Origin: a virus
IMG/VR virus record: IMGVR_UViG_3300035698_000347
Location: 1-20,280 of that record
Reading direction: 5' to 3' (one strand)
DNA length: 20,280 bases
The position numbers and the translations under genes were made by a program. Below the pieces are notes generated by a model that made no database searches, was not told the DNA's origin, and was given only the letters and a program-made list of their open reading frames with translations. This document shows, one piece after another, positions 4,549 through 20,280 of this stretch (position 1 is the first letter of the stretch; every line of letters starts with the position of its first letter).

Positions 4549-5277
4549 ATGATAGAACAGTGTTCTAAAATGGCAAAACTGGCTGGGATTGCATATCTCG
4601 ATGAAAAGCCAGCAAAACCAAAATATAAAAAGCTTGGGTATGCAGGTCATAATTTTATAGAAAATGATGGAGCACAATGTCACGCTATTTGGAACGATGA
4701 AGAAATTGTATTATGTTTTAGAGGAACTGAGCCAAACGAATTTTCAGATATATTAGCAGATCTTAATGCTTGGCCTGATAAAGCGAAAGTAGGTGGAAGA
4801 GTTCATAATGGTTTCCAAAACGAATTGGAAAAAATTTGGGAAGATATAATTGAAATTCTCGAATTAAACAAAGATAAAGAGCTATATATCACAGGTCATT
4901 CTTTAGGTGGTGCAATGGCAACAATTGCTGCTAGCCGTTTAAAAGACGAAATAGAAGCTCTATACACATATGGATCGCCACGAGTTGGTACTAGAAAATT
5001 TGTAAAATCTTTTTCTAACGTTGAACATTATCGTCACGTTAATAATAACGATGTAGTTACTTCAATTCCACTAGCCTTTATGGGATATGTACATCACCGC
5101 CCTCCTCGTTATATCAATTTTCATGGTCATATTAGACCTTTCACTACTTGGCAAAGATTAAAAGATAAATGGCGTGGCAGACTAGCATCCATCAAACAAT
5201 GGAAACCATTTGATGGTGCTTCAGATCACGGAATGAATTTTTATGTAGAATATACAGAGAAAAATAAAAATGTCTAA
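4549..5277 (+). CDS. Class 3 lipase (alpha/beta hydrolase)
   Basis: A 242-residue lipase/esterase of the class 3 (fungal triglyceride lipase) family. The nucleophile motif GHSLGG is at 116-121 (Ser118). The acid is probably Asp168 in NNNDVVTSIP, and the base His227 in SDHGMNFY. CFRGTE at 57-62 is the typical strand and oxyanion segment of the family, and VHNGFQ at 85-90 and TYGSPRVG at 140-147 are also standard. The triad therefore looks complete. There is no signal peptide, so the enzyme is cytoplasmic unless released with help; four small genes follow directly, three with membrane segments. It would hydrolyse acyl esters in glycerolipids or lipid-like polymers; the substrate is unknown. Ribosome site AGGAGAAAC. 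A virion-borne, lysis or lipid-recycling role is inference. Confidence 0.88.
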   Translation: MIEQCSKMAKLAGIAYLDEKPAKPKYKKLGYAGHNFIENDGAQCHAIWNDEEIVLCFRGTEPNEFSDILADLNAWPDKAKVGGRVHNGFQNELEKIWEDIIEILELNKDKELYITGHSLGGAMATIAASRLKDEIEALYTYGSPRVGTRKFVKSFSNVEHYRHVNNNDVVTSIPLAFMGYVHHRPPRYINFHGHIRPFTTWQRLKDKWRGRLASIKQWKPFDGASDHGMNFYVEYTEKNKNV

Positions 5278-6420: not shown

Positions 6421-7014
6421 ATGGACAATTTAAAAAACTTAACAAAATCAGAACATCGAAACGCTGAAAGAACTGCGTTTATGCGCAGGCTAATAAAAAA
6501 GAATATTGCTCCAGTTCAATACTATGTTTATTTAAAAAACCAATTGTTTGTATACACTACGTTAGAATATTATGCAGGGCTTAAAGGTATTTTTGAAGGT
6601 GAAATGTCAAAATTAGAAAGATCTTCTTCATTACTTCAAGATGTTTTGGAAATGGAATCGATTGAAAATTTTAATAACACTGATGACGATTTAATACTTT
6701 TAGCCGCTAAAGACTACGTAAAATATATTGAAGAAATACAAGACGATAAAGATAGGCTCTTTGCTCACGTTTATGTAAGGCATATGGGTGATTTATCTGG
6801 CGGGCAAATGATTAAAAAATTAGTACCAGGTCCTATATCCTTTTATGAATTCGATGGCGACACCGAAGATCTTAAAGGCAAAATAAGAGAAAAACTACAT
6901 GACGGCCTGGTTGATGAAGCTAAAGTTTGTTTCAGCATGGTTCAAAAATTTTTAGAAGAATTGGAACAATATTTTAATGGAACAGACACCGAAGCTGTGG
7001 AAAACGTTGAATGA
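6421..7014 (+). CDS. ho1: Heme oxygenase (heme to biliverdin)
   Basis: A 197-residue heme oxygenase that would open the heme ring to biliverdin IX-alpha, releasing CO and Fe2+, with electrons from ferredoxin or another reductant. The proximal heme ligand is His12 in TKSEHRNAE. The distal-helix signature GDLSGGQ is at 123-129, preceded by RHM. The protein is all-helical as expected and somewhat shorter than cyanobacterial HO1. No membrane anchor. It is expressed from the consensus sigma70 promoter at 6356 and overlaps the bilin reductase gene by 38 bases, so the two steps are probably made together. Cyanophages carry ho1; here the surroundings lack photosynthesis genes. The alternative of iron scavenging from heme is less likely given the adjacent reductase. 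Confidence 0.93.
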   Translation: MDNLKNLTKSEHRNAERTAFMRRLIKKNIAPVQYYVYLKNQLFVYTTLEYYAGLKGIFEGEMSKLERSSSLLQDVLEMESIENFNNTDDDLILLAAKDYVKYIEEIQDDKDRLFAHVYVRHMGDLSGGQMIKKLVPGPISFYEFDGDTEDLKGKIREKLHDGLVDEAKVCFSMVQKFLEELEQYFNGTDTEAVENVE

Positions 7015-7666
7015 ATATGCCAACTATTTAGAAGCAAGGTTTGACGAAGTCTTTGAACGTTACGAAGAACCAAAAATAAATAAGTTAAATTTTAAAAATT
7101 GGAACAACACTTTTTGGAGTTCTAATGTTATTCGTAAGTGTCATTTAAAAACAATTGTACCTAAAGACGGGCGCGACCATTGGCTAATGCATGTAAACGT
7201 GTTTCCGAACACGAATATAGAATTGCCAATCCTTGGGTTTAATATCGCAGCTAGCCCTAAAAAGATTACTAGTTCGTTTATGGACTATAGCCCTTTATAT
7301 GGATTTCCACATCCGTATCACGATTATATGGAAATGCGTGTTGCTGGTTTGGAATGGAACATGCCACAGAATTTGCCACCCTGGGCCAGTGAAATCTTTT
7401 CAGGAGATGTGCTTACAGCTGACAACATTGATACTGATGCGGAACTCAACCATTTTATCCAAGTCATGACCGATTTGGTAGATTATTACCTAGACAATTT
7501 AAATGCGAATGCGCTCGAAACTCAGCGTGATATAAAGCCATTATTAAACAGATATTGTCAAAATCAAAAACTAAATCCGCATTTACATCGTTCTATTTTG
7601 GCTATGGGCATATCAGAGCAAGATAAAAACGATTACGTAAACAACGTATTGTTTGAAGAAATTTAA
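6977..7666 (+). CDS. pcyX: Ferredoxin-dependent bilin reductase (PcyX-like)
   Basis: A 229-residue FDBR that would reduce biliverdin to a phycobilin. The core motif is clear: RKCHLK at 53-58, MHVNVFP at 71-77, ELPILGFNIAA at 82-92, and FMDYSP at 101-106, followed by the C-terminal RYCQNQKLNPH at 192-202 and VLFEE. By motif position His72 and Asp103 correspond to the catalytic His88 and Asp105 of cyanobacterial PcyA, while the PcyA Glu76 position (HLE) appears to be Lys58 here. Loss of that Glu with retention of the His/Asp pair fits the phage PcyX group, reported to make phycoerythrobilin, better than true PcyA. The choice among PcyX, PcyA, PebA and PebS needs an alignment. No ferredoxin gene is in the window. 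The ATG at 6977 lies inside the heme oxygenase gene; an in-frame TTG at 7007 is an alternative start. Confidence 0.85.
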   Translation: MEQTPKLWKTLNEYANYLEARFDEVFERYEEPKINKLNFKNWNNTFWSSNVIRKCHLKTIVPKDGRDHWLMHVNVFPNTNIELPILGFNIAASPKKITSSFMDYSPLYGFPHPYHDYMEMRVAGLEWNMPQNLPPWASEIFSGDVLTADNIDTDAELNHFIQVMTDLVDYYLDNLNANALETQRDIKPLLNRYCQNQKLNPHLHRSILAMGISEQDKNDYVNNVLFEEI

Positions 7667-14470: not shown

Positions 14471-14962
14471 ATGTTAAGCTTTAAAAAGTTCATGACTGAA
14501 GAAAAAAACTTACACATGACGCACGCGGAAGATGCTGTTATAGATGGCGGAATTACAGGTACTCGTAACGTTATTAATTACCTACGTGATATTCGTGATA
14601 TGCTAGCAGGTAATACTAAAGCACCTGTCAACATTAGCGTTAAGTGGGACGGTTGTATTCACGAAGACACTATTGTTCTAACCAATGCCGGTGATATGAC
14701 AATCAAAGAAGTTGTTGAACGCTGTCAGTTGGATGATAATCTTATGGTAATGGGTAAGGAATTGGGTAGCCCATTACAATATGATCGCATGGTTCATATT
14801 CTAGCTGGTATGTCACAAGATGGCAAAAAGGCTTGGGTTGAAATTGAATTGGAAGATGGATCAAAACTGAAAATGACAGAAGACCACGAAGTACATACTT
14901 CTAACCGCGGTTGGGTTAAAGCTGGTGAATTAACTGAAGAGGATGATGTGACCGAATTGTAA
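14471..14962 (+). CDS. N-terminal half of a nucleotidyltransferase-like protein fused to a split-intein N-fragment
   Basis: A 163-residue protein: residues 1-61 are the N-extein (MLSFKKFMTEEKNLHMTHAE... ending SVKWDG) and residues 62-163 the intein N-fragment. The extein ends exactly with K58-W-D-G61, the motif I signature (KxDG) of the ligase/capping-enzyme nucleotidyltransferase superfamily, where Lys takes the nucleotide. The remaining domain is encoded at 15763-16821, so activity would need trans-splicing. Its start sits directly after the preceding stop with no clear ribosome site, so translation is probably coupled. The first residues resemble the neighbouring gene's N-terminus and may be a capsid-targeting peptide. 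The joined 413-residue extein resembles a conserved marine-phage family of unknown function (DUF6267 as far as I recall). Confidence 0.85.
   Translation: MLSFKKFMTEEKNLHMTHAEDAVIDGGITGTRNVINYLRDIRDMLAGNTKAPVNISVKWDGCIHEDTIVLTNAGDMTIKEVVERCQLDDNLMVMGKELGSPLQYDRMVHILAGMSQDGKKAWVEIELEDGSKLKMTEDHEVHTSNRGWVKAGELTEEDDVTEL
14654..14959 (+). other. Split-intein N-fragment (102 residues)
   Basis: It begins with Cys (the splicing nucleophile) in CIHEDTIVLTNAGDMTIKEV, a standard block A. Block B is present near the C-terminus as LKMTEDHEVHT, with the TxxH motif (T, E, D, H), followed by NRGWVKAGELTEEDDV, the usual end of a natural N-fragment. The reading frame stops just afterwards, before any C-terminal blocks. 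Confidence 0.92.
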
Positions 14963-14996
14963 AGTGTGATGGATACCGCCTCAAATTACATCTTTT

Positions 14997-15004
14997 TATA
15001 AATA
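14997..15004 (+). promoter_or_regulatory. T4-type late promoter for the HNH gene (TATAAATA)
   Basis: Exact match after a T run, 20 bases upstream of the HNH ATG and in the gap between the intein N-fragment gene and the endonuclease gene. The start of transcription would fall just before the ribosome site AAAGGAGG. Confidence 0.7.
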
Positions 15005-15023
15005 AAAATAAAAGGAGGCTAAT

Positions 15024-15671
15024 ATGACTATTGAATTCACAGAAGAAATGAAGACAAAATACATTGAGAAATACAAAGAAACGTATTCTGTATCAGAAGT
15101 ATTGAGATCATTTGATAATGGAGTTGGAAGAAGTAGAGTAGTAAAGTTATTAAAAGATGAAGGTATATACGAAGGGTTAACCGGCTCTAACTATCTCCGG
15201 AAGAAAGTTGAAAATAATGAAAAGATAATGACAGAGAGATACGGCGTTATTAATTGGGGACAGACGAAAGAAGGCGGCTACAAAAAACAAAACAAAATAC
15301 CATACCAAAAAATATCTTATTTAGATGATAAATACAGAGAATATAGAGCTGCGGTTGAAAAAGAAACAAAGAAGAATATAAAACATATAGACTTTCCAAC
15401 ATATTGTTATTATACTGGAATACAATTTGCAGACGAAGAAGGACTTGTTAATCCGAACGACCCAAGAAAGAGAAGTGTAGATCATAAGGTTCCGGTTATT
15501 ATTTGTTATTTAAACGGTATATCAGTAGAGCAAGCAGGTAGTATAGATAATCTTACTTTTGTTTTAAAATATGTAAATTCGGTTAAGTCTAACACAGAAC
15601 ACAAATCGTTTTTAGCGGTAGCGCATAAAATAAGAAAGGTTTTTATAAATGAAGGTTATAAAAGTAATTAA
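15024..15671 (+). CDS. HNH homing endonuclease inside the fractured gene
   Basis: A 215-residue free-standing endonuclease in a frame different from both intein halves. Its very strong ribosome site (AAAGGAGG) and late promoter make it an independent gene. Residues 20-50 (SVSEVLRSFDNGVGRSRVVK) look like a helix-turn-helix DNA reader. TERYGVINWGQTKEGGYKKQ (70-89) resembles the YGV.N..Q modules seen in phage homing enzymes. YCYYTG (127-132) precedes the HNH core: SVDHKVP (151-157), then D-N176-L and N185-S-V-K188, the bba-metal nuclease pattern. It probably nicks or cuts intein-less copies of the target gene, spreading the whole unit. The endonuclease family first described in fractured genes is Vsr-like; this one is HNH. 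Confidence 0.85.
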   Translation: MTIEFTEEMKTKYIEKYKETYSVSEVLRSFDNGVGRSRVVKLLKDEGIYEGLTGSNYLRKKVENNEKIMTERYGVINWGQTKEGGYKKQNKIPYQKISYLDDKYREYRAAVEKETKKNIKHIDFPTYCYYTGIQFADEEGLVNPNDPRKRSVDHKVPVIICYLNGISVEQAGSIDNLTFVLKYVNSVKSNTEHKSFLAVAHKIRKVFINEGYKSN

Positions 15672-15762
15672 ACTAAAAGAGAAGTATGAGCAATATGATA
15701 TTAGCACTACTTCCGAAAACTTTTATGTGCGAACAAACAATGGATACATATTAATTCATAAC
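15649..15762 (+). other. Split-intein C-fragment (38 residues)
   Basis: It starts MKVIKVIKLKEKYEQYDIST, the usual short basic C-fragment opening with the block F pattern YDI, continues FYVRTNNGYILIHN, and ends with the block G His-Asn pair before Ser. With the 102-residue N-fragment this makes a 140-residue mini-intein without an internal endonuclease domain. Confidence 0.92.
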
Positions 15763-16821
15763 TCGCCAGCTGTATTTGCTGGAATTGATCCTAGCGATGG
15801 TAAATTCTTTGTAGCTAAAAAGGGTATTTTTAATAAGAACCCAAAGCTATATAAAACACACGCCGATATTGATGCTGATACTATTGGCAAGGCTGAATTA
15901 AACGCAAAATTAAAAATTGCACTCGACGAGTTTTCAAAGCTCGGAATTAAGGGTGTAGTACAAGGTGATTTTTTATATGAAAAAAGCGATATTAAAGAAG
16001 ATAAGATTAATGGGGAATCGCATATTACTTTCCATCCTAATACGATTGTTTACGCTGTACCTAAATCGACTGCCCTTGCTAAAACAATACTCAAATCCAA
16101 AGTTGGAGTGGTCTGGCATACTGTATACCGAGGATCAAAACTTGAGGAAATGTCTGCAAGTTTTGGAGAAGAGATTGCAAGCGGTCTCAAAACAGTCCCG
16201 TCGGTCTGGTCAGTAGACGCAGTATTCAAAGATCAATCTGGCAACGCAACATTTACCGCAAAAGAGACTGCTGATATTACAAAGGTAATATCTCAAATTG
16301 GTTCACTGTTTAGAACAATTCCAAAAAACACGTTTGATGCTTTAAAGCCAGGATCTCAGTATGATATTAATATGCGCCTCAATACTTACATCAATACAAA
16401 GGTTCGTGCCGGCGAAAGAATTGGTAGTCCAAAAACTTTTGTTAAAGGCTTTCAGAAATACTTAAGTGATTATTATGATAAAGAAATTGATAATAAAAAA
16501 TCGCCAAAAGGTAAAGCAACCTGGCAAGCTAAAAAAGATAATGCCATGATGTTTTTCAGTAAAGTTAAACCACGTGATTTAGAAAATCTTTTTACTATGT
16601 ATAATTTAATCGTTGACGCAAAGCATACAATTATTCGTAAACTTGAAAACGTTGATGGTTTAAAAACGCTACTCAAAACTAATAATGGTTATGAGGTTAC
16701 AGGACAAGAAGGTTTTGTTGCTATTGACCGTTATGGTAAAAACGCACTAAAACTAGTCGACAGATTGCAATTTTCGTCAGCAAACTTTTCAGACAAGTAT
16801 ATTAAAGGATGGCAAAAATAA
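15649..16821 (+). CDS. Split-intein C-fragment fused to the C-terminal part of the nucleotidyltransferase-like protein
   Basis: A 390-residue protein: residues 1-38 are the intein C-fragment, ending in HN, and residue 39 (Ser) is the +1 extein residue. The ATG overlaps the HNH gene by 23 bases after AGAAAGG. After splicing the junction would read KWDG-SPAVFAG. The C-extein continues GKFFVAKKGIF, which could be motif Ia (SRNG-like), and GIKGVVQGDFLYEK, which could be motif III (DGEL-like), then HITFHPNTIVYAVP and a long Lys-rich C-terminal half. This pattern supports a divergent nucleotidyltransferase/ligase fold; motifs IV and V are not obvious, so catalytic competence is uncertain. The 352-residue C-extein is the bulk of the protein. 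Related proteins in other marine phages, as I recall, are unbroken. Confidence 0.87.
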   Translation: MKVIKVIKLKEKYEQYDISTTSENFYVRTNNGYILIHNSPAVFAGIDPSDGKFFVAKKGIFNKNPKLYKTHADIDADTIGKAELNAKLKIALDEFSKLGIKGVVQGDFLYEKSDIKEDKINGESHITFHPNTIVYAVPKSTALAKTILKSKVGVVWHTVYRGSKLEEMSASFGEEIASGLKTVPSVWSVDAVFKDQSGNATFTAKETADITKVISQIGSLFRTIPKNTFDALKPGSQYDINMRLNTYINTKVRAGERIGSPKTFVKGFQKYLSDYYDKEIDNKKSPKGKATWQAKKDNAMMFFSKVKPRDLENLFTMYNLIVDAKHTIIRKLENVDGLKTLLKTNNGYEVTGQEGFVAIDRYGKNALKLVDRLQFSSANFSDKYIKGWQK

Positions 16822-16966: not shown

Positions 16967-17254
16967 ATGACTACAACAGTTAACTACTTACCGAAACAGA
17001 TAGTAATCACCCCAGTCGTACAACTCTTTAAGGTTGTATTTAATGCACTGGGGTCACTTCATAGGTCATATAAAAAAGCAAGAAAAGCTAGTGAAACTAT
17101 TCAAGAACTGAATAGACTAAGCAATTCTGAACTGATGGATATTGGTCTTACACGGGGTGACATCTATTCTATTGCACATCAGTCTATGTCTGATTACTCA
17201 GATAAGATTAATACTAAAGTTGGTCCTAACCAAAACCTTAAGGGGTGGGTGTAA
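16967..17254 (+). CDS. DUF1127-domain protein
   Basis: A 95-residue basic protein with AGGGGAAACTAAA before the ATG. Residues about 10-35 are hydrophobic/basic, and the DUF1127 signature is clear at about 45-67: ELNRLSNSELMDIGLTRGDI. In bacteria, above all alphaproteobacteria, short DUF1127 proteins are common; in a few species they have been linked to carbon and phosphate metabolism and to RNA regulation. A phage copy probably came from a host and could redirect host physiology. It overlaps the next gene as TAATG. The 28-residue tail after the domain is not typical of the family. Confidence 0.85.
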   Translation: MTTTVNYLPKQIVITPVVQLFKVVFNALGSLHRSYKKARKASETIQELNRLSNSELMDIGLTRGDIYSIAHQSMSDYSDKINTKVGPNQNLKGWV

Positions 17255-17553: not shown

Positions 17554-18090
17554 ATGAAAGAATGGTTTGAAGGAAAAACTGTTGCTGTAGTTGGAAACGC
17601 TGCATCTCTCATAGAAAAAAAATACGGTGAAGAAATAGACACTGCTGATGCTGTTGTAAGAATAAACCGTGGCGGTTATAGGTTTCCGCAATTCGAAAAA
17701 CAAATGGGTAAAAAACTCAACGTGTGGTGTGTGCAAAACATACGCCAAAATAAAAAGTGGATTCAAAATCCGTTAATAAAATCGGCTCATATAATGCAAA
17801 TGGATACGATAGATATATCTCCACAGTTTATAGAAATGGCTGATATGGTGTTTACCAAAAAAGATAGACATGCGTTAGATAAAAGCTTGCCAAAGAAATC
17901 TTCTACAGGTCTTAGGGTTCTTTATTATATAGCCAAACACAATCCAGAAAAAGTTTTTGTATATGGCTTTGATTGGAAAGAAACGTATTCTTGGCATGAA
18001 AAAAGAAAATGTATAGCACACAACTTTGAGGAAGAAAAGAAGTATTGCTATGATAACTTTTTTAATAACCAATTTGAATTAAGGAATTGA
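17554..18090 (+). CDS. Glycosyltransferase family 29 (sialyltransferase-like) protein
   Basis: A 178-residue protein with the sialyltransferase motifs. Motif L is VAVVGNAASL (10-19) followed by G..ID.AD.VVRINRGG (25-41). Motif S is SSTGLRVLYYIAKHN...VFVYGFDW (116-141). A His near 156 followed by acidic residues (HNFEEEKKY) is a possible motif VS. Family GT29 transfers sialic acid or related nonulosonic acids from CMP-sugars; short GT29-like proteins also occur in marine phages, where the donor is unknown. The length is well under that of animal enzymes and there is no membrane anchor. First gene of a glycosyltransferase run; the target (phage particle, phage DNA or host surface) cannot be told. 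Confidence 0.85.
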   Translation: MKEWFEGKTVAVVGNAASLIEKKYGEEIDTADAVVRINRGGYRFPQFEKQMGKKLNVWCVQNIRQNKKWIQNPLIKSAHIMQMDTIDISPQFIEMADMVFTKKDRHALDKSLPKKSSTGLRVLYYIAKHNPEKVFVYGFDWKETYSWHEKRKCIAHNFEEEKKYCYDNFFNNQFELRN

Positions 18091-18091
18091 A

Positions 18092-19144
18092 ATGAACTTT
18101 TTCGTGGCATCATCTTCAAAGGCTACTGCGCATATAGCAGAAGTATTGTGCTCGCCAAGAATTAAGTATTTCTCTGAAAATACTACTATACCAAAGCATG
18201 TAATGCCAAAGGACTTTAAACACCACTTTGATAATTCTGATGCTTTAATACTCAACGGTACATGGGGTTCCAAACTAAGAAAGAAATTGTATTTGCCAAA
18301 GTGCGAGAATGGAGTCTGGAAAGATGGGAATATTCCTAGACACATTTACAAGGGAAACAAACTACCTGACAAAAGCAGATTTGCAATATTGGATTACATT
18401 AATTCAGAACTAGTGCTACTTGCGCGGAAACAGAAAAAGCCGATTATCGTTTTAGAGAGTGCAACTATTTCTCGAGCCGAAAAGAATTATGCTAAAGATT
18501 ACGATCATAAAAATTTTGTAAGGATTAGCTTGGACAATTGGTCATACGGTGACGGCAAATGGTTGGATGAAAACAATGTGGACAACATAAGAACTGTAAA
18601 TGCATCGCGTCTTTATAATCACCAATGGAAATCAGAGAAAGAAGGTAGCATATACATATTTACCGGTCTTGAGACAGACCCAACTAGTACCATGCCAATC
18701 GAACAATTTATCACAAGTTCTATAAAAAAAATAAGAAACCATACAAATAAAAGAATATGTATAAAAGTACATCCTGGCTCAAAAAATAATAAAGCAATCG
18801 GACTCAAGTTAAAAAACTACGAGAACGTAGATTTAATAGAAAAACGTGTTCCTATTCAAAACTTCTATCAGGACATGTACTGCGCAGTGATAGACAATTC
18901 AACGAGCATCTTTGAACTAATAGACGCAGGAATACCAACTTTCTGCTCAGACACAAACTTTGGATCTTTATTACATAACACAGATCTAAATAATATATGC
19001 GATCCCTACTTCGCGACTCAAAAAGAAATACTTAACTGGACCAATAAAATGTCCTGCACTGAATTTACTAAAAAAGACATCAGTTCACCAAACATAGTGC
19101 ATATACTCGAAAAGCTAGTAAGGAAGAATAAGGAATTCAAATGA
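18092..19144 (+). CDS. Probable glycosyl- or glycerophosphate-transferase, GT-B-like
   Basis: A 350-residue protein starting one base after the GT29 stop. The C-terminal part looks like the donor-binding half of GT-B enzymes of the capsule or CDP-glycerol type: RICIKVHPGS (221-230), then VDLIEKRVPIQNFYQDMYCA, and DNSTSIFELIDAGIPTF (268-284), where an Asn-Ser-Thr segment and an E..D.GIP helix are characteristic. The N-terminal half (ALILNGTWGS; KKPIIVLESATISRAE; VRISLDNWSYGDGKW) resembles uncharacterised phage glycan proteins. No membrane segments. It overlaps the next gene by four bases (ATGA). The specific reaction is unknown. Confidence 0.6.
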   Translation: MNFFVASSSKATAHIAEVLCSPRIKYFSENTTIPKHVMPKDFKHHFDNSDALILNGTWGSKLRKKLYLPKCENGVWKDGNIPRHIYKGNKLPDKSRFAILDYINSELVLLARKQKKPIIVLESATISRAEKNYAKDYDHKNFVRISLDNWSYGDGKWLDENNVDNIRTVNASRLYNHQWKSEKEGSIYIFTGLETDPTSTMPIEQFITSSIKKIRNHTNKRICIKVHPGSKNNKAIGLKLKNYENVDLIEKRVPIQNFYQDMYCAVIDNSTSIFELIDAGIPTFCSDTNFGSLLHNTDLNNICDPYFATQKEILNWTNKMSCTEFTKKDISSPNIVHILEKLVRKNKEFK

Positions 19145-19932
19145 AAAAAATAAATGCAGTAACTTGTTTTAGTCTAAAAGGTTGGAGAGAGACTGGTGGT
19201 CTATTAGTAAATGGCTTTATTAAATATTGGCCTAAAGAAACAACTCTTACCGTGTACGTTGATGATCCAATTCCAAAGAAGGATCTAATACGCGACCCTA
19301 GAGTAAAGTACGAGATACTCAATCACAAAGATCTTTTGGCGTTTAAAAATAGACACAAGAATAATACAGAAGCAAACGGAGGTGGCAAGTATTTAGTGAA
19401 GGGTGCTAAAAACTATAAGTACGATGCTGTTCGTTTTAGTCATAAGGTGTTTACTCTGTTTCAATTTCTAGAAACAAATGACACCGACATTCTTATATGG
19501 CTTGACGGTGATAGTAGAACACATTCGCCTGCTAGTATAAATAACATTAACAGTTGGTTGCCAACAGGTAAATTTGCTGGGTATCTTGCTCGTCCTTGGA
19601 TGTATACAGAAACAGGGTTCCATATTTTTGACGTAAAGCACAAAATAGCAAATGATTTTTTAAATATGTGGAAGCAATATTATTTAGACGATAGCATTTT
19701 TCAATTAACAATGTGGACTGATTGCCATACGTACGACGCTGCTAAAACTCACTTTGAAGATTTGCATTGGTTTAATCTTAGTCCTCCTGTTAAAAACAAC
19801 CACCCTTTTATTAATGGCCCGCTTGGCGAATTCATGGATCATATGAAGGGTCCTCGTAAAGCAAAAGGTACAAGTCATAAAAAAGATTTGGTAGTTCGAA
19901 GAAAAAATACTTATTGGGATAACGTAAAATGA
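19141..19932 (+). CDS. Probable GT-A glycosyltransferase
   Basis: A 263-residue protein. A D-G-D triplet at 122-124, in DILIWLDGDSRTH, follows a hydrophobic strand as in the DxD metal/nucleotide-sugar site of GT-A folds. Upstream lie TLTVYVDDP (35-43) and YDAVRFSHKVFTLFQFLE (94-111), the typical helix before the DxD strand. Downstream, TETGFHIFDVKH (about 155-167) resembles the 'E.G...F' acceptor region. Similar proteins occur in marine phage glycosyltransferase runs. Acceptor and sugar unknown. It overlaps both neighbours by four bases. Confidence 0.65.
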   Translation: MKKINAVTCFSLKGWRETGGLLVNGFIKYWPKETTLTVYVDDPIPKKDLIRDPRVKYEILNHKDLLAFKNRHKNNTEANGGGKYLVKGAKNYKYDAVRFSHKVFTLFQFLETNDTDILIWLDGDSRTHSPASINNINSWLPTGKFAGYLARPWMYTETGFHIFDVKHKIANDFLNMWKQYYLDDSIFQLTMWTDCHTYDAAKTHFEDLHWFNLSPPVKNNHPFINGPLGEFMDHMKGPRKAKGTSHKKDLVVRRKNTYWDNVK

Positions 19933-20280
19933 TATATTCTTTTATGTCAGGCAAAGGAGAACAAGATCTTTATGTAAGGCATTTTGGTGCTTCTGTCGGT
20001 GCAAAGCTGGTTTGGACAAAACATTTTTTTACAAAAACACAAGGTAACAGTCAAGTACCGGGCAGTATTAGAAAACGGCCGCTACCACAGAACGTAACTG
20101 GAATTATATTTGCAGGCATGCTCCGTGGAAACGCGCATTTATTTCAATTGGCGAAGCAATATAATATTGATTTTTATTACATTGATCATGCGTATTTTAA
20201 CTCAGGATATAAAAATCCACACTGGATGCGGATTATAAAAAACGGATTTGCTCAGAACGCAATCATTTCTCAAAGAGATA
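19929..20280 (+). CDS. Partial gene, glycan-related phage protein, cut by the window edge
   Basis: The ATG overlaps the previous stop (ATGA at 19929-19932) and the frame stays open for 117 codons to the right edge. It begins MIYSFMSGKGEQDLYVRHFG and contains VTGIIFAGMLRGNAHLFQLA, then YYIDHAYFNSGYKNPHWMRI. The DHAYF.SGY...W.RI.KNG pattern is familiar from phage and bacterial surface-polysaccharide proteins next to glycosyltransferases; no named family can be assigned from this fragment. Confidence 0.7.
   Translation, partial: MIYSFMSGKGEQDLYVRHFGASVGAKLVWTKHFFTKTQGNSQVPGSIRKRPLPQNVTGIIFAGMLRGNAHLFQLAKQYNIDFYYIDHAYFNSGYKNPHWMRIIKNGFAQNAIISQRD

What the first reader, a model, noticed from the sequence alone, without database searches (positions are those of the whole stretch)
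14471..16821. Fractured gene: split intein exactly after a KxDG motif, with a free-standing endonuclease between the halves
Seen: three overlapping or adjacent ORFs in three different frames. The first ends with an intein N-fragment (Cys start, TxxH block B), the last starts with an intein C-fragment (YDI block, terminal HN, +1 Ser), and an HNH gene with its own promoter and ribosome site lies between. The predicted ligated product restores KWDG-SPAVFAG. Known: such 'fractured genes' with split inteins were described from marine metagenomes, in hosts such as gp41 helicase, NrdA/J and IMPDH. Inference: the intein sits in the nucleotide-accepting motif of a nucleotidyltransferase-like protein, so the activity is absent until trans-splicing joins the parts. 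I know of no split intein reported in this host protein.
Basis: partly seen in the sequence, partly recalled or inferred. Interest (0 to 1): 0.9.

Follow-up and report, generated by a model that had tools for sequence, protein, structure and literature searches.

The report
Phage gene split by trans-splicing intein
A conserved marine-phage gene of unknown function is cut in two by a mobile element that should stitch the two protein halves back together, with a DNA-cutting gene sitting in the gap; the arrangement type is known, but this host gene and the unusually complete set of stages of the element's life cycle are not something I found described.

Summary
Three ORFs in three frames encode an N-half (61-residue extein plus 102-residue intein-N), a 215-aa HNH/endonuclease-VII-like protein, and a C-half (38-residue intein-C plus 352-residue extein). 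The extein is Pfam DUF6267 (PF19782): profile positions 1-47 lie in the N-half and 48-373 in the C-half, with nothing missing. Dozens of intact phage homologues run straight across the junction.

The element is not unique. Profile scans gave 25 complete IMG/VR loci (about 23 distinct), all at the same KxDG|S site. All keep Cys1, a terminal His-Asn and a +1 Ser written with six different codons, whereas 67 of 68 intact homologues have Ala there. Carriers are scattered on the extein tree (at least 6 changes), as expected of a mobile element.

Related loci show most stages of a homing cycle: empty gene; intact gene with the same endonuclease family beside it; split intein with endonuclease; damaged endonuclease; deleted endonuclease. 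The endonuclease gene usually carries a T4-type late promoter and a hairpin over its ribosome site.

This is a new member of the known 'fractured gene' kind. The nucleotidyltransferase reading of DUF6267 is plausible but unproven. No splicing or cleavage was tested.

The parts
14471..14962 (+). N-half ORF (163 aa): N-extein plus intein-N
   Evidence: DUF6267 profile 1-47 at residues 13-61
14471..14653 (+). N-extein (61 aa) of a DUF6267 protein, ending in KWDG (14642-14653)
   Evidence: alignment with intact homologues
14654..14959 (+). split-intein N fragment (102 aa): Cys1, block B TEDH
   Evidence: TIGR01445 above cut-off; profile of 14 relatives matches NrdJ-1 split intein at 6e-17
14991..15016 (+). 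predicted RNA hairpin UCUUUUUAU (14991-14999) / AUAAAAGGA (15008-15016) that covers the endonuclease ribosome site; late-promoter box in the 5' arm and loop
   Evidence: similar design in most relatives
14997..15004 (+). T4-type late promoter box TATAAATA for the endonuclease gene
   Evidence: 7 of 10 relatives carry TATAAATA here, 0.14 expected by shuffling
15013..15018 (+). ribosome-binding site AGGAGG of the endonuclease gene
   Evidence: sequence
15024..15671 (+). free-standing HNH / endonuclease-VII-like putative homing endonuclease (215 aa)
   Evidence: CxYT[GN]...NPNDxxKR[ST]xDH...N...N conserved in 11 relatives; 8 of 11 match phrog_1035 endonuclease VII
15633..15639 (+). AGAAAGG ribosome site of the C-half, inside the endonuclease 3' end; the piece kept when the endonuclease is deleted in L090 and L109
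15649..16821 (+). C-half ORF (390 aa): intein-C plus C-extein; start overlaps the endonuclease ORF by 23 nt
15649..15762 (+). split-intein C fragment (38 aa): block F YDISTTSENFYV, terminal LIHN
   Evidence: conserved in 13 aligned relatives
15763..16818 (+). C-extein (352 aa), +1 Ser (TCG)
   Evidence: DUF6267 profile 48-373, E 1.7e-86

Best explanation
A T4-like marine phage gene for a DUF6267 protein has been invaded, exactly after the glycine of its KxDG motif, by a mobile 'fractured gene' unit: a class-1 split intein whose two pieces are fused to the two halves of the host protein, with a free-standing HNH-type homing endonuclease gene between them. The halves are translated separately, the intein pieces associate, splice in trans through Cys1, Asn38 and Ser+1, and leave a seamless 413-residue protein. 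The endonuclease cuts uninvaded DUF6267 alleles in co-infecting phages, so that repair copies the whole unit into them, changing the +1 Ala codon to Ser on the way. The endonuclease is held back in read-through transcripts by a hairpin over its ribosome site and released late from its own T4-type late promoter. Shown: the sequence anatomy, recurrence at one site, conserved splice residues, scattered distribution, presence/absence of the endonuclease. Inferred: splicing, cleavage, homing, timing.
For: DUF6267 profile 1-47 | 48-373 across the two halves. Intact homologues align without a gap. Intein hits. 25 complete loci with invariant Cys1, His-Asn and +1 Ser in six codons (TCN and AGY), all after K-x-D-G, against Ala in 67 of 68 intact proteins. 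Low dN/dS in intein-N between window and L091 (0.14/1.72). Carriers need at least 6 changes on the extein tree and sit beside intact relatives: window with L010, L097 with Melnitz phage, L108 with L082/L084. Endonuclease family found only beside or inside DUF6267 in the 34 loci of the scan. Endonuclease lost or damaged in L090, L109, L139, L113, L116, L150 while the split intein persists. Late promoter and hairpin, with the same design proven for T4 homing endonucleases (PMC2988022).
Against: No splicing, cleavage or homing experiment exists. The endonuclease model is poor (pLDDT 71.5, pTM 0.41) and gives no PDB fold match; Pfam HNH is sub-threshold and in one member only. Hairpin energies are only modestly below shuffles (z -1.0 and -1.25 in the window, -1.9 in L091, -0.4 in L093). 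Lower intein than extein divergence could partly reflect different constraint. All carriers found are IMG/VR contigs; none was found in the cultured-phage collection.
Confidence: 0.9

Rival explanations
1. Gene-in-pieces without splicing: the endonuclease split the gene and the two polypeptides assemble non-covalently, the intein remnants being dead baggage (as in the mobE-split nrdA of phage Aeh1).
For: Precedent: Aeh1 NrdA works as separate pieces (PMC2988022).
Against: All intein catalytic residues and the required +1 Ser are invariant in 25 loci with synonymous-codon turnover; intein-N dN/dS is low; the split lies inside a conserved motif.
Confidence: 0.05
2. Assembly or sequencing artefact breaking a normal cis-splicing intein with an internal HNH domain.
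For: A cis intein with a nested endonuclease would have a similar order of parts.
Against: Three different frames, two further contigs identical over the unit, and the same stop, intergenic region, ribosome site and overlapping start in about 20 diverged loci; the endonuclease stop overlaps the C-half start by exactly 23 nt in six lineages.
Confidence: 0.01
3. Domesticated switch: the phage keeps the split because needing both halves delays or gates DUF6267 activity, not merely because the element is selfish.
For: The endonuclease-free splits L090, L109 and L139 persist; the C-half start lies inside the endonuclease reading frame, so its translation may be coupled.
Against: Most relatives do without the split; scattered distribution and endonuclease decay are what a selfish homing cycle predicts (PMC1654191 abstract).
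Confidence: 0.12
4. The DUF6267 host is a ligase-family covalent nucleotidyltransferase and the intein sits at its nucleotide-accepting lysine motif (compatible with the best explanation).
For: Ordered, invariant or near-invariant K58-x-D60-G61, Q128-G129-D130, E377-G378-x-V380, K391 in 40 homologues, mostly kept in relatives at about 24% identity (L093/L113); top PDB fold hits are DNA ligases and the next viral hits after its own family include RNA/DNA ligases.
Against: Fold E-value 0.045, TM 0.2; no PDB sequence hit; hhalign against phage RNA ligases negative; a helical insert of about 130 residues between the third and fourth motifs is atypical.
Confidence: 0.65

Closest known systems
Fractured genes (Dassa et al. 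2009, Nucleic Acids Res. 37:2560; cited in PMC10448857, PMC12350094; the paper itself is not held)
   Same: Conserved phage gene broken in two by a split intein with a free-standing endonuclease gene between.
   Different: Host is DUF6267 rather than the helicase, NrdA/NrdJ or IMPDH hosts known to me; the endonuclease is HNH/endonuclease-VII-like rather than the EDxHD/Vsr type that paper introduced; here endonuclease-less splits and stand-alone endonucleases beside intact alleles are seen as well.
NrdJ-1 natural split intein (PDB 8UBS)
   Same: Closest solved relative of the N fragment (profile E 6e-17); comparable fragment layout.
   Different: Different host protein; the C fragment matches only weakly (E 0.3).
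T4 hairpin-controlled homing endonucleases I-TevI/II/III, segB, Aeh1 mobE (PMC2988022)
   Same: Late promoter placed so that only read-through transcripts form a hairpin over the endonuclease ribosome site.
   Different: Those lie in group I introns, between genes or in a split gene without intein, not between halves of a split intein; regulation here is predicted only.
Collaborative homing model (PMC2988022)
   Same: A free-standing endonuclease aimed at a gene that also receives an endonuclease-less splicing element.
   Different: Described there for group I introns; here the splicing element is a split intein. Direction of events is not resolved.
uvsW of Salmonella phage S16 (NC_020416)
   Same: N-half with intein-N, endonuclease gene, C-half with intein-C in a cultured T4-like phage.
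   Different: Other host gene; TnsA-like/NUMOD3 endonuclease.

Membership tests
Fractured gene | conserved protein-coding gene broken into two ORFs, intact in relatives | tested here: met
Fractured gene | intein N and C fragments exactly at the break | tested here: met
Fractured gene | free-standing endonuclease gene between the halves | tested here: met
   separate ORF with own ribosome site; nuclease by motif and PHROG matches
Fractured gene | EDxHD/Vsr-type endonuclease (in part of the known loci, not required; from my own knowledge of the 2009 paper) | tested here: not met
   HNH/endonuclease-VII-like instead
Fractured gene | protein trans-splicing | not testable with these tools
   needs expression
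Class 1 (split) intein | Cys1, TxxH in block B, Asp in block F, penultimate His, terminal Asn, +1 Cys/Ser/Thr | tested here: met
   Cys1, Thr75, Asp77-His78 and block F Asp17-Ile18 invariant in aligned members; His-Asn and +1 Ser in all 25 loci
HNH homing endonuclease | HNH / His-Me finger signature | tested here: met
   CxYT[GN]...DH...N...N conserved in 11; phrog_1035 endonuclease VII 3.4e-7 best; fold search uninformative
HNH homing endonuclease | association with one target gene | tested here: met
   34 of 34 loci beside or inside DUF6267
HNH homing endonuclease | cuts the uninvaded allele and promotes its own copying | not testable with these tools
   needs cleavage and mixed-infection assays
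DUF6267 (PF19782) | profile match above the gathering score | tested here: met
   35.4 and 291.4 vs 27 bits
Ligase-type covalent nucleotidyltransferase | motif I KxDG and motifs III, IV, V in order | tested here: met
   invariant or near-invariant in 40 homologues; motif assignment is by eye
Ligase-type covalent nucleotidyltransferase | fold or profile similarity to known members | tested here: inconclusive
   best PDB fold hits are ligases but E 0.045; sequence profiles negative
Ligase-type covalent nucleotidyltransferase | lysyl-NMP intermediate | not testable with these tools
   needs enzyme assay
Hairpin/late-promoter controlled phage homing endonuclease | late promoter inside a hairpin that hides the ribosome site | tested here: met
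   as a prediction only: TATAAATA in 7 of 10; ribosome site >=0.9 paired in 7 of 10 vs 2 of 17 other window genes; energies modest

The most novel reading that the evidence does not exclude
The DUF6267 locus is a natural series for the intein version of collaborative homing: a stand-alone HNH endonuclease already dedicated to DUF6267 was captured by a split intein at the same gene, spread among diverged phages by converting the +1 Ala codon to Ser, and was then repeatedly lost, leaving bare split genes whose retained scar is the ribosome site of the C-half.
Probability: 0.35. Interest if true: 0.7.

Novelty: new member of a known kind. Interest (0 to 1): 0.55.

Why it matters
It adds a widely distributed marine-phage protein family of unknown function to the hosts of natural split inteins, with about 23 distinct natural N/C pairs at one insertion site, which is useful raw material for trans-splicing tools. 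The related loci show intact, endonuclease-beside-intact, split-plus-endonuclease, split-with-damaged-endonuclease and split-without-endonuclease states of the same gene. That makes the origin and decay of a split intein directly testable. The Ala-to-Ser difference at +1 means splicing should leave a detectable amino-acid scar. The insertion point also flags KxDG as likely critical to DUF6267.

Tried and rejected
Artefact or cis-intein reading rejected (three frames, about 20 diverged loci). RNA-level splicing: no intron family in Rfam at the site; two sub-threshold hits (twister-P3 23.8 vs 39.9 bits; mir-8250) treated as chance. hhalign of DUF6267 against five phage RNA ligases: negative, small alignments. 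PDB sequence search with the DUF6267 profile: nothing. AlphaFold of the endonuclease: poor, no fold match. Co-conversion tract search by comparing window and L010 flanks: identity 72-93% in 60-nt bins away from the gene end, no clear tract. Endonuclease tree: too poorly resolved to say whether stand-alone or intein-linked came first. dN/dS for the endonuclease failed on a framing error in my script and was not repeated. The founding fractured-gene paper is not in the library, so its host list could not be checked.

Full report
What is there. The window is a complete 20,280-base IMG/VR virus record with a T4-like replication block: gp59 loader, gp32-like ssDNA-binding protein, UvsX, gp41 helicase. 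After gp41 come a short ORF, a phrog_2496 protein and then the locus in question. ORF 14471-14962 encodes MLSFKKF...SVKWDG followed by CIHEDTIVLTN...TEDHEVHT...DDVTEL. ORF 15024-15671 encodes a 215-aa protein. ORF 15649-16821 begins MKVIKVIKLKEKYEQYDISTTSENFYV...LIHN followed by SPAVFAG....

The host protein. Pfam DUF6267 (PF19782) is matched at profile positions 1-47 by the N-half and 48-373 by the C-half, so the break costs nothing. Cultured phages encode it as one ORF of roughly 400 residues: Stenotrophomonas phage DLP_6, Melnitz phages of Methylophilales, Pelagibacter phage HTVC008M and others. The joined extein aligns with them without a gap at the junction. Of 80 IMG/VR loci with the closest C-exteins, nearly all are intact.

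The split intein. The N fragment passes the NCBIfam intein N-terminal cut-off. A profile of 14 N fragments matches the NrdJ-1 split intein at 6e-17 and DnaE inteins more weakly. Fragment sizes (102 + 38) are those of the common natural split site at the endonuclease insertion position (sizes as in PMC11923092). Scans with the N fragment, C fragment and endonuclease profiles gave 25 complete loci, about 23 distinct. All have Cys1 directly after K-x-D-G, His-Asn at the end and Ser at +1; the Ser is written TCT, TCA, TCG, TCC, AGT or AGC. Intact homologues have Ala in 67 of 68 distinct proteins, the exception being L081. A distant sister group (L168-L174) has Ser natively, and L158-L160 have Tyr. 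TCN and AGY cannot interconvert by one base change without leaving Ser, so the residue appears to be held by selection at the protein level or gained more than once, as splicing chemistry requires. Between the window and L091 intein-N has dN 0.14 and dS 1.72, and the C-extein has dN 0.50.

Mobility. On a tree of 56 DUF6267 exteins the carriers are scattered: starred branches force at least 6 changes. The window pairs with intact L010 (90% identity), L097 with the Melnitz phage protein, and L108 groups with intact L082 and L084. Long-branch carriers (L115, L116) are placed unsurely. One jumbo-phage pair (L092/L093, 293 kb contig) carries the unit in a distant DUF6267 fused behind another domain. 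This fits repeated invasion of one site, although a single ancient gain with many losses is not formally excluded.

The endonuclease. The middle ORF keeps CxYT[GN]...NPNDxxKR[ST]xDH...N...N. Eight of 11 members match the PHROG endonuclease VII family (best 3.4e-7), and others match HNH or homing endonuclease families. Pfam HNH is sub-threshold and the structure model is poor, so the class rests on motif and PHROG evidence. All 34 loci found with this family lie inside or beside DUF6267. In L158-L160 and L166 the endonuclease stands alone immediately upstream of an intact DUF6267; in L168-L174 it lies on the other strand next to an intact, distant DUF6267. In L113 it is frameshifted (possibly an error), in L116 shortened to 132 aa, in L150 reduced to a remnant. 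In L109, almost identical to L105 in the exteins, and in L090 it is deleted down to its last codons, which contain the ribosome site and start of the C-half; L139 has none. These are the stages expected of a homing cycle. The direction of capture cannot be read from the poorly resolved endonuclease tree.

Expression. Between the N-half stop and the endonuclease start, 7 of 10 loci contain TATAAATA, the T4 late promoter box, against 0.14 expected on shuffling. In 7 of 10 the endonuclease ribosome site is at least 90% paired in a read-through transcript, against 2 of 17 other window genes with a recognisable site. In modelled late transcripts, which lack the 5' arm, the pairing falls. Energies are only mildly below shuffles. 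The same design is established for I-TevI, and described for I-TevII, I-TevIII, segB and Aeh1 mobE (PMC2988022). The C-half start overlaps the endonuclease stop by 23 nt in six lineages and has a ribosome site inside the endonuclease frame.

Is DUF6267 a nucleotidyltransferase? In 40 homologues K58, D60, G61, Q128, G129, D130, E377, G378 and K391 are invariant, in the order of ligase motifs I, III, IV and V (motif assignment from my own knowledge). The AlphaFold model of intact L010 (pLDDT 83.7) has DNA ligases as its best PDB matches, but at E 0.045 and low TM. After its own family the viral library includes RNA and DNA ligases. Sequence profiles do not connect. I hold this at about 0.65. The protein is also fused to or followed by cytidylyltransferase-like genes in several phages.

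Known or new. The organisation is that of the fractured genes described in 2009 (cited in PMC10448857 and PMC12350094; original not held), and cultured phages also have it in other genes (S16 uvsW, KP13-7 nrdA). A literature search found no paper that names DUF6267. I therefore file it as a new member of a known kind; its special value is the host and the nearly complete set of states at one locus.

Noticed in passing
window 6421-7666: Adjacent heme oxygenase (PF01126, 1.4e-21) and ferredoxin-dependent bilin reductase (PF05996, 7.9e-15) genes: a bilin-synthesis cassette on a phage contig.
   Followed up: partly
window 17554-20279: Cluster with a GT29 sialyltransferase-like protein (PF00777, 9.8e-14) and further unassigned ORFs at the right end.
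   Followed up: partly
window 16967-17254: DUF1127 protein (PF06568) directly downstream of the fractured gene, where some relatives carry a cytidylyltransferase-like gene.
   Followed up: no
window 4549-5277: Class 3 lipase-like protein (PF01764, 2.7e-24) in a phage.
   Followed up: no
L123 3177-5299: The L091 phage has a second fractured gene about 4 kb upstream: UvsX/RecA split by an intein, with an HNH-looking ORF on the opposite strand between the halves.
   Followed up: partly
L124 8606-11662 (minus strand): The L111 phage has a family B DNA polymerase broken by split-intein pieces with no endonuclease gene between.
   Followed up: partly
L102 2814-5540: Cultured Salmonella phage S16 carries a fractured uvsW: N-half, TnsA-like/NUMOD3 endonuclease (annotated hypothetical), C-half; not annotated as an intein.
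   Followed up: partly
L104 843-6126: Klebsiella jumbo phage KP13-7 nrdA is in several pieces, with split-intein halves flanking a GIY-YIG ORF.
   Followed up: partly
L005 3842-5048: In the older S-PM2 record (AJ630128) DUF6267 is broken over two annotated genes and two frames, while the later record LN828717 gives one piece; probably a sequencing difference.
   Followed up: no
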